A stretch of DNA of 34,354 nt, from contig CAIKLQ010001007.1 in the NCBI GenBank assembly GCA_903828255.1, forward strand, positions 1-34,354, read 5' to 3'. Below, piece by piece: positions 3,591 to 26,525 of this stretch. The stretch is from an uncultured Verrucomicrobiota bacterium. Its GTDB lineage: Bacteria > Verrucomicrobiota > Verrucomicrobiia > Limisphaerales > JADLHS01. Positions within the stretch are counted from its first letter, which is position 1; each line of letters opens with the position of its first letter. The position numbers and the translations under genes were made by a program. The notes under the pieces were generated by a model. It saw nothing but the letters and a program-made list of their open reading frames with translations. It did no database searches and had not been told where the DNA came from.

Positions 3591-3751
3591 TCATCCACTG
3601 AATAAAAATCAAAAATCCAATCTTGACCCACGCCAACGAAGGCGCGTTATCGGCAGCAACGCACCCGACGCAATGGCGAGTATGCTAGTGTCATCTTGCG
3701 TCCGAGAATCAATTGATTGTGTTTGCCGGCAGTTCAGTTTGTAGTTAGCTC

Positions 3752-3768
3752 CCGGGCGAATAGCCCGG
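3752..3768 (+). other. Hairpin just upstream of the pseudopilin start
   Basis: CCGGGC and GCCCGG form a perfect 6-bp stem with a GAATA loop, 14 nt before the ATG at 3783. It has no T-tract, so it is not a terminator. It could affect translation start or mRNA stability, but this is only inferred. Confidence 0.3.
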
Positions 3769-3782
3769 AAAATCCTGATTTT

Positions 3783-4652
3783 ATGAAAAACATTTTGCGC
3801 CATGTTACTCCTTGGATCCGATCGTGGCGGCGCGGTTTCACCTTGATTGAACTGTTGGTGGTGATCGCCATCATCGCGATTCTCGCCGCGATGCTGCTGC
3901 CCGCCTTGAGCCGGGCGAAGATGAAAGCCACGGGGGCGTATTGCCTGAGCAACGAGAAACAGCTCGCGCTGGCGATCATCATGTATTCGGATGACAACGT
4001 CGGGAAGATGCCGCCGCGCTATTTTCAACCCACCGGGAGCCCCGCACCGTTGGAAATGTATGCGGGCGGTTACTGGCCGTCCCCATCGCCTGATATCACC
4101 GCCGGCATTTCCGAAGCCGAGGCGATCAAGCGCGTTCAGACTGCCATGAGAAAAGGGCCGCTGTTCACTTACGCCGCCGCGTTCGGAGCGTATCATTGTC
4201 CGGGTGATTTGCGCTTTCGCCGGAAGGTCGGCGATCATTGGGCGTACGACAGCTACTCGAAAGTGGACGGGATGAACGGCGACTTTTGGGATGTTAATGT
4301 GCCTTCGATCGAGAAGCTGCCGAACGTTCCCGAACCCGCCAAAGCCATGGCCTTTATCGAGGAGGCTGATTCCCGGAACTACAACCTCGGGACCTGGGTG
4401 ATTGACGCGCCCGGCCACGGTTGGGTGGACTCTGTTGCGGTTTTTCACGCCAACTCCAGCACGGTGAATTTTGCTGACGGGCACGCCGAGAGTCACAAAT
4501 GGCTGGAGAAAACCACCTTGGATCAGGCGGCGGCGGCGCAAGCGGGGAGGGACGTCAACTTCGGCTGGACGAAAGTCCCGAATGATCGCGACTTCGCGTG
4601 GGTTGAACCGCGTTACAAATACAAGGGTTGGCCGAAATACTTGCCGAAGTAG
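3783..4652 (+). CDS. Type II secretion pseudopilin-like protein (prepilin-type N-terminus)
   Basis: The 289-aa product has a class III signal: a basic leader ending RRG, then [20 protein letters not shown] prepilin peptidase would cut before the Phe, and Glu5 of the mature form is present. The hydrophobic helix continues into [12 protein letters not shown], the usual start of the PVC family of orphan prepilin-like proteins. Near the C-terminus, [13 protein letters not shown] is the H-X9-DG-like motif that marks this family. Such proteins are abundant in Verrucomicrobia and Planctomycetes and usually have no pilus genes nearby, as here. The precise role is unknown. ATG 3783 was preferred over an upstream alternative start at 3717 because it gives a standard-length charged leader. 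Confidence 0.88.
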
Positions 4653-4686: not shown

Positions 4687-4714
4687 TTGACCTGGGCCTA
4701 AAACCACTGATAAC
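4687..4714 (+). promoter_or_regulatory. Candidate sigma-70-like promoter for the leu leader
   Basis: TTGACC (4687-4692) is followed after 16 nt by GATAAC (4709-4714), or after 18 nt by TAACTT. Either choice puts transcription start at about 4721-4723, right at the leader peptide's GTG. Match to consensus is partial, and the call relies on its position before the attenuator. Confidence 0.4.
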
Positions 4715-4722
4715 TTTTCGCC

Positions 4723-4797
4723 GTGAACGTGAATCTAAATCTGAGCCGGTTGCTTACGAACGCGCTGCTGCTGTGCGGCGCGGCAGTCGGGTTCTGA
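4723..4797 (+). CDS. leuL: Leucine-rich leader peptide of leuA attenuator
   Basis: A 24-codon open frame starts with GTG and reads VNVNLNLSRLLTNALLLCGA then AVGF and stop. Seven of 24 codons are leucine, including one CTA and a run of three CTG (4765-4773). No Shine-Dalgarno precedes the GTG, and the candidate promoter places the mRNA 5' end at or within two bases of it, so it may be translated as a leaderless message. It lies 25 nt before a strong terminator hairpin and about 185 nt before leuA, the first enzyme of leucine synthesis. Ribosome stalling at the Leu codons under leucine shortage would control read-through. The peptide itself needs no other function. The symbol leuL is given by analogy with enterobacterial leader peptides; this peptide is not homologous in sequence. 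Confidence 0.72.
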   Translation: MNVNLNLSRLLTNALLLCGAAVGF

Positions 4798-4856
4798 TTC
4801 GCGAAATCGAGATTTTCTGAACCCCACTGCCGATTGGCGGTGGGGTTTTTGTTTTT
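4782..4856 (+). terminator. Attenuator: antiterminator strand plus intrinsic terminator before leuA
   Basis: The terminator stem pairs CCCCACTGCC (4822-4831) with GGCGGTGGGG (4836-4845) around a GATT loop: 10 bp with one G-U pair. TTTTTGTTTTT follows (4846-4856). An upstream strand GGCAGTCGGG (4782-4791) overlaps the last leader codons and can pair with 4822-4831 in 9 of 10 positions, so it competes with the terminator. A ribosome stalled at the CTG run would leave this strand free and favour antitermination. A ribosome at the stop codon (4795-4797) would cover it and let the terminator form. This is the classic amino-acid attenuation layout. Confidence 0.75.
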
Positions 4857-4860
4857 GGAA

Positions 4861-4960
4861 TCTTAATCTTAATCGTAACTTTGCTCTTACTCTACCGCGC
4901 CGGGCGCGGAGCTTGGGGAGGGGGGGGGGATTAAGATTAAGAGGAAGATTAAGAGTAAGA
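4861..4960. repeat. Hexamer-type intergenic repeat with 14-bp inverted arms
   Basis: Perfect 14-bp inverted arms (TCTTAATCTTAATC at 4861-4874 and its complement at 4929-4942) enclose a small CCGCGC/GCGCGG hairpin and a run of ten G (4920-4929). The right side continues as a loose hexamer array of GATTAA, GAGGAA and GAGTAA units. GATTAAGAGTAAGA (4947-4960) recurs inverted at 26428-26441, where a G run of eleven is also nearby. It lies between the attenuator and the leuA start and would be in the leuA 5' untranslated region. Confidence 0.6.
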
Positions 4961-4981
4961 CGAATAACGAAAGACCAAGCC

Positions 4982-6637
4982 ATGCTCAAAGACCCGTCGA
5001 AAAAATATCGCGCGTTTCCACCGGTGGAATTGCCGGACCGTCGCTGGCCCAACCGCACGCTCACCCATGCCCCGCTCTGGTGCAGCGTGGACCTGCGCGA
5101 CGGTAACCAAGCCCTCGCCGTCCCGATGAACGTCAGCCAAAAGCTCGAACTCTTTCACGCTCTCGTGAAGTGCGGCTTCAAGGAAATCGAAGTTGGCTTC
5201 CCGTCCGCGTCGAACACGGAGTTCACGTTCAACCGGCGGCTGATCGAAGAACGCCGCGCCCCGGACGACGTCTGGTTGCAGGTGCTCGTGCAGGCGCGCG
5301 AGGATTTGATCGAGCGCACGTTCGAGTCGTTGGTCGGGGCTAAGCGGGCGATCATCCACATGTACAACTCCACGTCGCCGGCCCAGCGCCGCGTCGTGTT
5401 CGGGAAGTCCAAGGATGAGATCAAGGCCATCGCCGTGAACGGGGCCAAGTTGATCAAAGACCGCCTGCCCCGCCTCGCCGGCACGGAAGTGATGCTCCAG
5501 TATTCGCCGGAAAGTTTTTCGGCGACGGAAGTGGAGTTCGCGAAGGAGATTTCCGAAGCGGTCATGGATGTCTGGCAACCGACGCCGCAACGGAAGATGA
5601 TTTTGAATCTCCCGGACACCGTCGAGGTCGCGATGCCCAACGTGTATGCCGATCAAATCGAGTGGATTTGTCGCAACATCAAACAGCGCGACTCGCTCAT
5701 CATCAGCTTGCACACGCACAACGATCGCTGCACGGGCGTGGCCGCGACGGAGTTGGGCCTGCTCGCGGGCGCGGATCGAGTCGAGGGCACGCTCTTCGGC
5801 AACGGCGAGCGCACCGGCAACCTCGACCTCGTCACGGTGGCGCTCAACCTCTACATGCACGGCATTGATCCCCGACTCGACTTTTCGGATTTGAGTTCGC
5901 TCATTGAGGTCTATCAGCGCTGCACCGAAATGACCGTGCCGCAACGCCACCCGTATGCGGGTGAGCTGGTGTTCACGGCGTTCAGCGGTTCGCATCAGGA
6001 TGCCATCAAGAAAGGCCTTGCGGAATGGAGCGGCGAACCGCGCACCCACTGGGATGTGCCCTATCTCACGATTGATCCGGCGGACATTGGCCGCGAATAC
6101 TCCGAAGTCATTCGCGTGAATTCGCAGTCCGGCAAGGGTGGCGTGGCGTTTCTGCTCGATAGCGAATTCGGCATCGTGCTGCCCAAGGACCTGCAACGTG
6201 AGTTTGGGCCGATTGCCAATGTCGAGGTGGACCGCCTCGGCCGCGAAGTGAGCGGCGCGGAGCTCAAGGCCATGTTCTGGCGCGAATATGTGGAGCGCGA
6301 TTTCCCCTGGCAATTTGAAGGCTTTGAAACCGAGAGCCGCAATGGCGTGGTGAAATGCCGCGGGCGCTTGTTGCGCGAGGGCAACCCGGTCGAGCTGAGT
6401 GGCGAAGGCAACGGCCCGCTCGCCGCCCTCGTTCACGGCTTCAGCACCCTTGGCGTGCCGCGATTCGAAATCACCAACTACTTCGAACACGCGCTGAGTT
6501 CCGGTGAGGGCGCGAGCGCCATCTCCTACATCCAGATCAAGGGCGCCGACGGCAAGTCGCGCTGGGGCGCGGGCGTGGACACGAACATCGAACTCGCCTC
6601 CGTGCGCGCGGTCCTCAGCGCGCTGAACCGCTCGTAG
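4982..6637 (+). CDS. leuA: 2-isopropylmalate synthase
   Basis: The 551-aa enzyme condenses acetyl-CoA with 2-oxoisovalerate to give 2-isopropylmalate, the first committed step of leucine synthesis. The catalytic TIM barrel starts with VDLRDGNQAL (residues 37-46), which holds the metal-binding Asp. SLHTHNDR at about 242-249 supplies the two metal-binding His, and FGNGERTGNLDLVTVALN follows. The C-terminal about 130 residues (VECRGR-like start, VHGFSTLG, YIQIKGADG, GVDTNIELASVRAVLSALN) form the LeuA dimer/regulatory domain that normally binds leucine for feedback inhibition. Length and motifs match the longer LeuA type of yeast and actinobacteria. ATG 4982 was chosen because the frame upstream is translated repeat sequence. 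No strong Shine-Dalgarno is visible. Transcription is probably controlled by the attenuator at 4723-4856. Confidence 0.95.
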   Translation: MLKDPSKKYRAFPPVELPDRRWPNRTLTHAPLWCSVDLRDGNQALAVPMNVSQKLELFHALVKCGFKEIEVGFPSASNTEFTFNRRLIEERRAPDDVWLQVLVQAREDLIERTFESLVGAKRAIIHMYNSTSPAQRRVVFGKSKDEIKAIAVNGAKLIKDRLPRLAGTEVMLQYSPESFSATEVEFAKEISEAVMDVWQPTPQRKMILNLPDTVEVAMPNVYADQIEWICRNIKQRDSLIISLHTHNDRCTGVAATELGLLAGADRVEGTLFGNGERTGNLDLVTVALNLYMHGIDPRLDFSDLSSLIEVYQRCTEMTVPQRHPYAGELVFTAFSGSHQDAIKKGLAEWSGEPRTHWDVPYLTIDPADIGREYSEVIRVNSQSGKGGVAFLLDSEFGIVLPKDLQREFGPIANVEVDRLGREVSGAELKAMFWREYVERDFPWQFEGFETESRNGVVKCRGRLLREGNPVELSGEGNGPLAALVHGFSTLGVPRFEITNYFEHALSSGEGASAISYIQIKGADGKSRWGAGVDTNIELASVRAVLSALNRS

Positions 6638-6903
6638 CGGGTAGGGGCGCAGGCGTCCTCGCCTGCCTGTCCCTGCGGGCGTCTCGTCTGCAGTTTTTCC
6701 ACCAGCCGGGACGCCGCTGGGACGGTGACAGCCAGGACGACTGCCCCACTAGAGGACCACGCCTCACTCCCATTACAACAGTCTGATTCGGCGGGTCGTG
6801 AGTTATGCCCAGGCCTCGGAACAGGAACAGAGCCGGAGGCGCTTGCCTGCCGGCACCAGCGACGGCCGTCCTCAACCTTTCGAATGAGTGGGAGGAATTC
6901 ACT
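6638..6903. other. Gene-free stretch with dispersed-repeat hairpin
   Basis: No gene is supported here. A perfect hairpin GCAGGCG-TCCT-CGCCTGC (6649-6666) just after leuA lies in GGTAGGGGC-type repeat sequence that also occurs inside the helicase gene near 33430. The TGCCCCACTAG motif (6738-6748) has related inverted copies near 9545 and 21773. The rest shows nothing recognisable. Confidence 0.45.
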
Positions 6904-6933
6904 GCCGCGCGGCCGTTCGCGCGGCGGTTTTTT
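6904..6933 (+). terminator. Intrinsic terminator upstream of the sialidase-like gene
   Basis: GCCGCGCG (6904-6911) and CGCGCGGC (6918-6925) form an 8-bp stem with a six-base loop, followed by GG and six T. It probably ends transcription coming from leuA. It also argues against the longer open frame (from 6805) as the start of the next gene. Confidence 0.65.
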
Positions 6934-6969
6934 CTTGCGCGTTTTGGCCAAGCCGCTTCATTGAAGGCA

Positions 6970-8157
6970 ATGAATCGTTATTTCATCCTCGTCCGGTTAT
7001 TGCTGGCCTTCGGTCCGGGCGCTTTGCTTTCCTCCCACGCCGCATCCACGGACAGAAATTCGCCCGCCCTTCGCAAAGTCGCGGACCTCGTCATCTACCA
7101 AGACGAAAAATTCTACAGCGCCTTCCCTTCTATCGTGCGGCGCAAAGATGGCGAGTTGATCACCGCGTTTCGCCGCGCGCCGAATCGCAAACGGCTCGGG
7201 GAAAAATCCATCTCGCATACCGACCCGAACAGCTACCTCGTCCTCGTGCGCTCCCGCGATGGCGGCAAATCCTGGACGCAAGAGCCGGAGCTGATTTACG
7301 CCCATCCATTCGGCGGCTCGCAGGATCCGTGCATGGTGCAGTTGCGCGACGGCACGCTCCTTTGCACGAGTTACGGTTGGGCGCTCCTGGATCCCGACTT
7401 CGCCGCGCGAATGGACGCCTCTCTTCGCCACGGCAGTTTCGTTTTCCTGGGCGGCTACGTGTTGCGCTCGAAGGACGCCGGTCATTCCTGGCAAGGCCCG
7501 TTCCTGCCGCCGCCCGTCGGCGCGGATCCCACCCCTGACATTTTCGGGCAGCCGCTCCCCGCCTACAACCGCGGCGCTATGTGTCAGGGCAAGGACGGGC
7601 GACTCTACTGGGTCGTCGCGGCGAATAGCAGCGCGCTCCCCCGCCACACGGAAACGCACCTGCTGATTTCGACCGATCAAGGCGCGAACTGGAAATACTC
7701 CTGCCCCGTCGCCGCCGACCCCAAAGTCACGTTTAACGAAACCTCGATTTACGAAACGCCACGCGGCGACCTGGTCGCGTTTCTGCGCACGGAAGGTTTC
7801 AACGATCACACCGCCATCGCGCGCTCGACCGATCATGGAAAATCTTTTCAGCCGTGGCAGGACGCGGGCTGGCAGGGGCATCCGCATTACGCGCTGCGTC
7901 TGTCGGATAAACGCGTGCTGCTGGTCTATGGGTATCGCCACCCGCCGTTTGGCATTCGCGCGCGGGTGCTGGACGCGGAATGTGCGAACTTTTCCACCGC
8001 AGAGGAAATCATCCTGCGCGACGATGGCGGCAATGGCGACCTCGGTTACCCTTGGGCGACCATGATTTCCAAGACTCAGGCGCTGGTCGTTTACTACTTC
8101 AACCGCGCCGACGGCCCGCGCCACATTGCCGGAACAGTTGTGGAAATTGGGCGTTGA
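6970..8157 (+). CDS. Secreted sialidase-like protein with Asp boxes
   Basis: The 395-aa product begins with a signal peptide of about 25 residues (hydrophobic core ILVRLLLAFGPGALL, end SSHAA). The rest is a six-bladed sialidase-type propeller with four Asp-box motifs of the S-x-D-x-G-x-x-W kind: SRDGGKSWT, SKDAGHSWQ, STDQGANWK and the weaker STDHGKSFQ. An early FRRAPNRK segment may hold an active-site Arg. Family members remove sialic acid from glycans, but many BNR-repeat proteins of PVC bacteria act on other sugars, so the substrate is not certain. ATG 6970 was chosen because the longer frame crosses a terminator and ATG 6970 gives a clean signal peptide. The gene for an unknown exported protein follows 33 bp later and probably shares its transcript. 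Confidence 0.8.
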   Translation: MNRYFILVRLLLAFGPGALLSSHAASTDRNSPALRKVADLVIYQDEKFYSAFPSIVRRKDGELITAFRRAPNRKRLGEKSISHTDPNSYLVLVRSRDGGKSWTQEPELIYAHPFGGSQDPCMVQLRDGTLLCTSYGWALLDPDFAARMDASLRHGSFVFLGGYVLRSKDAGHSWQGPFLPPPVGADPTPDIFGQPLPAYNRGAMCQGKDGRLYWVVAANSSALPRHTETHLLISTDQGANWKYSCPVAADPKVTFNETSIYETPRGDLVAFLRTEGFNDHTAIARSTDHGKSFQPWQDAGWQGHPHYALRLSDKRVLLVYGYRHPPFGIRARVLDAECANFSTAEEIILRDDGGNGDLGYPWATMISKTQALVVYYFNRADGPRHIAGTVVEIGR

Positions 8158-26403: not shown

Positions 26404-26525
26404 GGAAGTGGCGGTCACGCCCTGGAGTCTTACTCTTAATCCTTTTCTAAACCGCAGGCGGCGCCGATTAAGGTTAAGCCGCCCGTTGACCGCCACTTCC
26501 TATCGCCCCCTGCCACGGGGGGCGA
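26404..26525. repeat. REP-like inverted repeats upstream of RAYT remnant
   Basis: GGAAGTGGCGGTCA (26404-26417) and its exact complement (26487-26500) are 14-bp perfect arms around about 70 nt. Directly after them, TCGCCCCC (26503-26510) and GGGGGCGA (26518-26525) form a second 8-bp hairpin. A run of eleven G (26390-26400) precedes, and the CTTACTCTTAAT motif shared with the leu repeat is inside. The pair lies about 75-195 nt before a RAYT remnant and could be its REP/REPIN. Confidence 0.55.

What the first reader, a model, noticed from the sequence alone, without database searches (positions are those of the whole stretch)
4687..4981. Complete leucine attenuator with a probably leaderless GTG leader peptide upstream of leuA
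Seen: a 24-codon GTG frame with seven Leu codons, including three consecutive CTG; a 10-bp terminator stem with a T-tract at 4822-4856; and a strand at 4782-4791 that can pair with the 5' arm of the terminator in 9 of 10 positions while lying under the last leader codons. Known: this is the geometry of classical trp/leu/his attenuation. Inference: a ribosome stalled at 4765-4773 leaves the antiterminator strand free, and one at the stop codon hides it. The candidate promoter puts the mRNA start at the GTG, which would make the leader a leaderless ORF. I am not aware of a described leu attenuator of this form in Verrucomicrobia.
Basis: partly seen in the sequence, partly recalled or inferred. 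Interest (0 to 1): 0.75.

Follow-up and report, generated by a model that had tools for sequence, protein, structure and literature searches.

The report
Leaderless leucine attenuator before leuA
A whole order of Verrucomicrobia carries, just in front of a leucine-making gene, a short RNA switch in which a ribosome reading a tiny leucine-rich peptide decides whether transcription continues; the mechanism is the textbook one, but its presence here, and the peptide's apparent start at the very first base of the RNA, were not reported in the papers I could search.

Summary
The finding is real and mostly correctly interpreted. The window lies in a Pedosphaera-like (Verrucomicrobia subdivision 3) MAG. 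In 54 related leuA loci the leader, Leu run, terminator and both alternative stems are conserved; the terminator covaries. Synonymous sites are fixed for antiterminator pairing. A covariance model finds it in 262 of 293 same-order genomes (113 of 118 genera) and in none of 240 phylum genomes outside the order. It also precedes a second, other-family leuA in two genomes, and ilvB in this order carries a matching valine attenuator; hisG and trpE have none. A TAnnnT box sits exactly 6 nt before the start codon in 32 of 52 loci, with TTGAC 34-36 nt upstream and rarely a Shine-Dalgarno: a leaderless promoter geometry. No regulation or transcript start was measured. I judge it a new, order-wide member of classical ribosome-mediated attenuation. 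Leaderless leader peptides are known in Streptomyces and Sinorhizobium.

The parts
4687..4716 (+). Promoter: -35 TTGACC (about 4688-4693) and -10 TAACTT (4711-4716)
   Evidence: Sequence; TTGAC at 34-36 nt before the start codon in 42 of 52 loci and TAnnnT exactly at -12..-7 in 32 of 52, at most one locus at any other offset tested
4723..4797 (+). Leader peptide ORF VNVNLNLSRLLTNALLLCGAAVGF*, GTG start, 7 Leu codons; predicted transcript start at the G of GTG
   Evidence: frame kept with indels of whole codons in 54 loci, lengths 20-24 codons, 4-9 Leu
4765..4773 (+). Regulatory Leu run CTG CTG CTG, predicted stall site under leucine limitation
   Evidence: last Leu run 8-10 codons before the stop in most loci
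4781..4794 (+). Strand 2 (antiterminator), inside leader codons 20-24
   Evidence: 13 of 14 pairs with 4819-4832; pair counts; synonymous-shuffle and swap tests; codon tests
4819..4832 (+). Strand 3: 5' arm of the terminator, alternative partner of strand 2
4837..4848 (+). Strand 4: 3' arm of the terminator
   Evidence: 97.2% of cells paired in 54 sequences, 6 of 12 pairs changed on both sides, 0 of 500 shuffles as high
4849..4856 (+). T-tract of the intrinsic terminator
4982..6637 (+). leuA, 2-isopropylmalate synthase (551 aa), the regulated gene
   Evidence: NCBIfam PRK03739.1 806 bits (cut-off 455), TIGR00970 713 bits (cut-off 697)

Best explanation
A classical ribosome-mediated transcription attenuator of leuA that senses charged leucyl-tRNA. 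Transcription starts at, or within a base or two of, the GTG of a 24-codon leader, so a ribosome starts on the RNA's 5' end without a Shine-Dalgarno. With leucine plentiful it runs to the stop codon at 4795, covers strand 2 (4781-4794), strand 3 pairs with strand 4, and RNA polymerase stops at the T-tract 4849-4856. With leucine scarce it stalls at the CTG run 4765-4773, strand 2 pairs with strand 3, the terminator cannot form and leuA is transcribed. Shown here: anatomy, conservation, covariation, RNA-level codon selection, promoter geometry, gene association. Inferred: the start site in vivo, termination, and the response to leucine.
For: 54 homologous loci share the leader, Leu run, antiterminator strand and terminator. 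Terminator 97.2% paired, 6 pairs with both-side changes, above all 500 shuffles and all slid versions. 2:3 stem: 78% of cells paired against 32-55% when slid; energy -20.8 against -14.5 kcal/mol for synonymous versions, stronger than its own mean in 54 of 54; cognate strands beat swapped ones in all of 5000 permutations. Gly23 is GGG in 50 of 51 against 10% in leuA, and Ala21 ends in a purine in 46 of 47 against 50%. Folding with a masked ribosome and strand 4 not yet made gives 2:3 for a stall at CTG15-17 and none for a ribosome at the stop. 262 of 293 order genomes carry it. It also precedes leuA of the TIGR00973 family in two genomes. ilvB of the order has a valine counterpart; hisG and trpE have none by the same kind of scan. 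Leaderless geometry.
Against: No RNA-seq, 5'-end mapping or expression data. The 2:3 stem was examined on an alignment whose strand 2 also codes for peptide, and its pair-type and pairs-changed counts are not exceptional (169 and 34 of 500 shuffles as high). Sequences are related, so binomial P values overstate independence. 20 of 52 loci lack an exact TAnnnT at -12, several having near matches.
Confidence: 0.9

Rival explanations
1. Nascent-peptide arrest: the leader peptide's conserved end (GAAVGF) itself stalls the ribosome in response to leucine or another signal (TnaC-like), rather than empty tRNA at Leu codons.
For: The C-terminal residues GAAVGF recur in most of 54 leaders.
Against: Residues there change to AVAGF, AADGF, GAVVGV, STAVGV, whereas synonymous positions that pair with strand 3 are fixed, so base pairing explains the conservation. 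Leu-rich leaders at leuA and Val-rich leaders at ilvB fit codon sensing.
Confidence: 0.05
2. The terminator belongs to the upstream pilin-like gene (ending 4652) and the small frame is a chance ORF; leuA has its own later promoter.
For: The upstream ORF 3717-4652 ends shortly before, and the 4849-4981 spacer is AT-rich in part.
Against: In-frame conservation and promoter-start spacing in 52-54 loci; many relatives have only about 45-55 nt between terminator and ATG; the element precedes two different leuA families.
Confidence: 0.02
3. An RNA element read by a protein or small molecule (like the actinobacterial LEU element or a riboswitch), with translation of the ORF incidental.
For: Actinobacterial leuA leaders have a Leu-rich ORF yet a conserved pseudoknot and no classical terminator (PMC1262725).
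Against: No Rfam family matches; here a terminator and a matching antiterminator exist; conserved bases outside the coding and stem parts are few.
Confidence: 0.03
4. Besides acting in cis, the terminated 130-nt leaderless RNA or its peptide acts in trans, as rnTrpL and peTrpL do in Sinorhizobium meliloti.
For: S. meliloti rnTrpL also begins at the leader ATG (PMC7298713); the leader here is conserved over an order.
Against: No target was sought; conservation is explained by the cis function.
Confidence: 0.1

Closest known systems
Classical ribosome-mediated attenuators of Proteobacteria (trp, his, leu, ilv operons)
   Same: Leader peptide with codons of the product amino acid, antiterminator strand under the last leader codons, intrinsic terminator, biosynthetic gene downstream
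   Different: Different phylum and sequence, no Rfam match, no Shine-Dalgarno in most leaders, start codon placed at the predicted transcript start; here apparently leuA alone
Leaderless LeuL1 (leuA) and LeuL2 (leuS) leader peptides of Streptomyces lividans (PMC8079986)
   Same: Leu-rich, transcribed leaderless; LeuL2 is followed by a hairpin and U-stretch
   Different: LeuL2 regulates leuS; LeuL1 before leuA lacks a typical terminator; 12 and 15 residues and no shared sequence seen
Actinobacterial LEU element upstream of leuA (PMC1262725)
   Same: Leu-rich leader ORF upstream of leuA
   Different: Conserved pseudoknot with a base stem joining Leu codons to the leuA Shine-Dalgarno, no classical attenuator
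Leaderless trpL attenuator of Sinorhizobium meliloti (PMC7298713)
   Same: Attenuator RNA whose 5' end is the start codon of the leader peptide
   Different: Tryptophan, Alphaproteobacteria, with a documented trans role
ilvB uORF attenuator of Corynebacterium (PMC11109978)
   Same: Branched-chain leader peptide, terminator and complementary antiterminator
   Different: Corynebacterium only, ilvBNC; the ilvB valine attenuator seen here is the nearer parallel

Membership tests
Classical ribosome-mediated transcription attenuator | Short translated leader with codons for the end-product amino acid | tested here: met
   24 codons, 7 Leu; conserved in 54 loci with in-frame indels; translation itself not measured
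Classical ribosome-mediated transcription attenuator | Intrinsic terminator between leader and gene | tested here: met
   13 bp stem plus T-tract; covariation 0 of 500 shuffles
Classical ribosome-mediated transcription attenuator | Mutually exclusive antiterminator whose 5' strand is hidden by a ribosome at the stop and free when it stalls at the regulatory codons | tested here: met
   13 of 14 pairs; masked folding and synonymous-codon tests
Classical ribosome-mediated transcription attenuator | Downstream gene makes the sensed amino acid | tested here: met
   2-isopropylmalate synthase of two families
Classical ribosome-mediated transcription attenuator | Read-through rises when the amino acid is scarce | not testable with these tools
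   Needs expression data
Leaderless mRNA | Start codon at or within a few nt of the transcript start, no Shine-Dalgarno | tested here: inconclusive
   Promoter geometry fits (TAnnnT-N6-GTG), SD-like sequence in 3 of 52; 5' end not mapped
Actinobacterial LEU element | Pseudoknot and base stem joining Leu codons to the leuA Shine-Dalgarno, no terminator | tested here: not met
   A terminator is present and conserved; consensus fold shows only the terminator stem besides a trivial helix; pseudoknots were not searched for
Rfam RNA families (release 15), including leucine leaders | Score above the family's gathering cut-off | tested here: not met
   No match in the window; best sub-threshold hit 20 bits against 55

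The most novel reading that the evidence does not exclude
An order-wide pair of leaderless or nearly leaderless attenuators (Leu at leuA, 0-nt 5' UTR; Val at ilvB, about 2-3 nt) is the standard control of branched-chain amino acid synthesis in Pedosphaerales/Limisphaerales. The leuA leader peptide descends from an older Verrucomicrobiota leader, sharing the in-frame dicodon CGA-CTT, whose read-out in sister orders is a different RNA structure without the terminator.
Probability: 0.4. Interest if true: 0.65.

Novelty: new member of a known kind. Interest (0 to 1): 0.52.

Why it matters
Naville and Gautheret wrote in 2010 that, to their knowledge, leader-peptide systems had been shown only in Proteobacteria and Actinobacteria before their own Firmicutes case (PMC2965389), and I found no report for Verrucomicrobia in the library. 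An attenuator present in nearly all genera of a Verrucomicrobiota order widens that range. Because the ribosome apparently loads on the RNA's first codon, the system is a clean place to ask how leaderless initiation keeps step with RNA polymerase over only about 130 nt. It also gives annotators two ready RNA families (leuA-Leu and ilvB-Val) for a group known largely from MAGs.

Tried and rejected
Rfam at gathering and relaxed thresholds: no family. Chance ORF plus upstream gene's terminator: rejected by conservation. Protector 1:2 hairpin: present in the single-sequence fold of the window but not in the consensus fold, so not claimed. Weak covariance-model hits elsewhere in the same genome: one was the ilvB valine attenuator (C123), another (C545) has no Leu run and its downstream gene was not identified, one (C435) is unconvincing. 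hisG and trpE upstreams as controls: none, with the limit that these genes may not lead their operons. Zheng et al. 2011 on leaderless genes does not mention Verrucomicrobia.

Full report
WHAT IS THERE. The window is contig C1007 of an 8.9 Mb, 1053-contig MAG. A genome of the same genus has its leuA on an 18,070-base contig, the length of a contig titled Pedosphaera sp. Baikal-deep-G230, and nearest leuA relatives are Verrucomicrobia subdivision 3 MAGs. NCBI places Pedosphaera in Verrucomicrobiota, Pedosphaerales; some hit titles say Limisphaerales. leuA (4982-6637) encodes 2-isopropylmalate synthase of the PRK03739/TIGR00970 kind. Upstream the sequence shows TTGACC, TAACTT, six bases, then GTG at 4723; a 24-codon frame with 7 Leu codons ending at 4797; and a 13-bp hairpin at 4819-4848 with a T-tract. 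The last five leader codons hold CGGCAGTCGGGTTC (4781-4794), which pairs with GAACCCCACTGCCG (4819-4832) at 13 of 14 positions.

CONSERVATION. All ten same-family genomes (the window's own included) with sequence upstream of a leuA start have the same arrangement. From 80 named leuA loci plus three same-family loci added by me, a script picked 52 leaders with terminator; with two more recovered by hand, 54 were aligned. Leaders are 20-24 codons with 4-9 Leu, and indels inside the frame are multiples of three. A covariance model of the alignment matches 262 of 293 genomes of the order at E <= 0.001, 147 of 154 good-quality ones and 113 of 118 genera; by my reading of the table roughly 220 are below 1e-9. 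In a phylum sample, none of the 240 genomes other than the window's own matched at E <= 1e-8. The element is therefore nearly universal in one order and absent, in this form, outside it.

TWO COMPETING STEMS. Terminator: 97.2% of cells paired, 6 of 12 pairs changed on both sides, no shuffle of 500 as high on any measure, and 35-63% paired when slid. Antiterminator: 78% paired against 32-55% when slid; covariation score above all shuffles, but pair-type counts ordinary. An independent test asked whether the leader's codon choice favours the antiterminator: with the peptide fixed, real 2:3 duplexes average -20.8 kcal/mol against -14.5 for synonymous versions, and all 54 exceed their own mean; strands from the same genome pair better than swapped strands in every one of 5000 permutations. 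Codon by codon, Gly23 is GGG in 50 of 51 (10% in leuA), Ala21 ends in a purine in 46 of 47 (50%), and Val22 avoids GTG, the one codon that would close the single mismatch: 1 of 44 against 50%. Relatedness of the sequences makes these P values optimistic, but the effect is large. The kept mismatch may ensure that the terminator wins when both could form; that is inference.

MECHANISM. With a ribosome masked at the CTG run (A site 4765-4771) and strand 4 not yet made, the predicted fold is the 2:3 stem; with a ribosome at the stop, strand 2 is covered and the terminator forms. In the masked folds with strand 4 present the terminator is still the minimum-energy fold, so antitermination must act kinetically, by 2:3 forming first, as in classical attenuators (established knowledge). 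Leucine codons, leuA and the stems fit sensing of charged tRNA-Leu. CTG and CTT dominate the leader Leu codons, whereas CTC, 36% of Leu codons in leuA, is nearly absent (12 of 343).

LEADERLESS START. In 52 loci TAnnnT lies exactly 12 bases before the start codon in 32, at most one locus at any other offset tested; TTGAC lies at 34-36 in 42; SD-like sequence in 3; start codon GTG in 46. The start of four leaders was shifted by hand to the upstream in-frame codon; without this the count at -12 is still 28. That places the transcript start on the start codon. It is a prediction. Leaderless leader peptides for leucine are already known in Streptomyces, and S. meliloti trpL RNA starts at its ATG.

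FUNCTIONAL ASSOCIATION. In two genomes of the order the same Leu attenuator also precedes a leuA of the other family, TIGR00973. A weaker model match in the window's own genome is a valine leader, MNGKIRQVVMVVVVTGDAVGACRS*, with terminator, before ilvB. Among the ilvB loci examined, 22 of 23 recovered leaders are of this kind (the one from L168 was mis-picked; one search shows a better one), with TAnnnT mostly at 14-15 nt, i.e. a 5' UTR of about 2-3 nt, and 21 of 23 antiterminator duplexes stronger than synonymous means. The same kind of scan found no such leader with terminator before hisG or trpE in the same relatives. The match of amino acid to pathway, and the negative controls, argue strongly for product sensing.

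LITERATURE AND NOVELTY. No Rfam family matches. The library held no paper describing such an element in Verrucomicrobia; subscription papers and supplements were not searchable, so a prior prediction cannot be excluded. The mechanism is known, so I file it as a new member of a known kind, with an unusual, order-wide leaderless design.

LIMITS. Nothing here measures transcription, termination or translation. Leader starts were picked partly by a script that rewards Leu content and TTGA upstream, so the -35 count is biased upward; the TAnnnT offset was not used in picking the leuA leaders, though the four manual shifts were made knowing it. The order and phylum searches used strict filters that lose weak matches.

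Noticed in passing
G000:C123:53286-53413 (minus strand), locus L137; relatives L143-L168: ilvB in the same order has its own valine-rich leader (e.g. MNGKIRQVVMVVVVTGDAVGACRS*) with terminator ACCCACGGCTG..CGGCTGTGGGT and a near-leaderless promoter geometry.
   Followed up: yes
L084-L112, about 120-170 nt before leuA: In Verrucomicrobiales and Chthoniobacterales leuA is preceded by other Leu-rich leader ORFs (e.g. MTTTATALLLLSLRLTQG*) without this terminator. An in-frame CGA-CTT dicodon is shared across orders: the hexamer CGACTT is in 33 of 80 upstream regions against 0.07 expected per 300 nt, although CGA is under 3% of Arg codons in leuA.
   Followed up: partly
L101, L103-L109, L111, L112, upstream of leuA: Verrucomicrobiaceae-type leuA leaders have a nearly invariant block CTGCGACTTACGCAAGGGTAGGCGGCCCGCGTTTCCTCGTCATG, in which the start region CATGAC can pair with GTCATG, followed by a GCCGTCACGTCACGGC hairpin; no T-tract. 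It may be a different leucine-responsive RNA.
   Followed up: partly
4861-4874 and 4929-4942: Perfect 14-bp inverted repeat TCTTAATCTTAATC / GATTAAGATTAAGA between the terminator and leuA; similar GATTAAG elements lie at several other places in the same genome and near 26434 in the window.
   Followed up: partly
L010, L011, L017 (between terminator and leuA): Other genomes carry unrelated inverted repeats (ACCACGGATGAACAC type) at the same spot, as if the attenuator-leuA spacer were a landing site for hairpin repeats.
   Followed up: no
L132/L135 (genome G134), L133/L136 (genome G074): Some genomes of the order have two leuA genes of different families, both preceded by the Leu attenuator.
   Followed up: partly
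A1 columns 70-72 (Val22 codon, window 4786-4788): The antiterminator keeps one mismatch at the Val wobble base; GTG, which would close it, is avoided (1 of 44 against 50%).
   Followed up: partly
window 3717-4652 and 6805-8157: Neighbours of leuA are a prepilin-type N-methylation protein upstream and a BNR-repeat protein downstream, so leuA does not appear to lead a leucine operon here.
   Followed up: no
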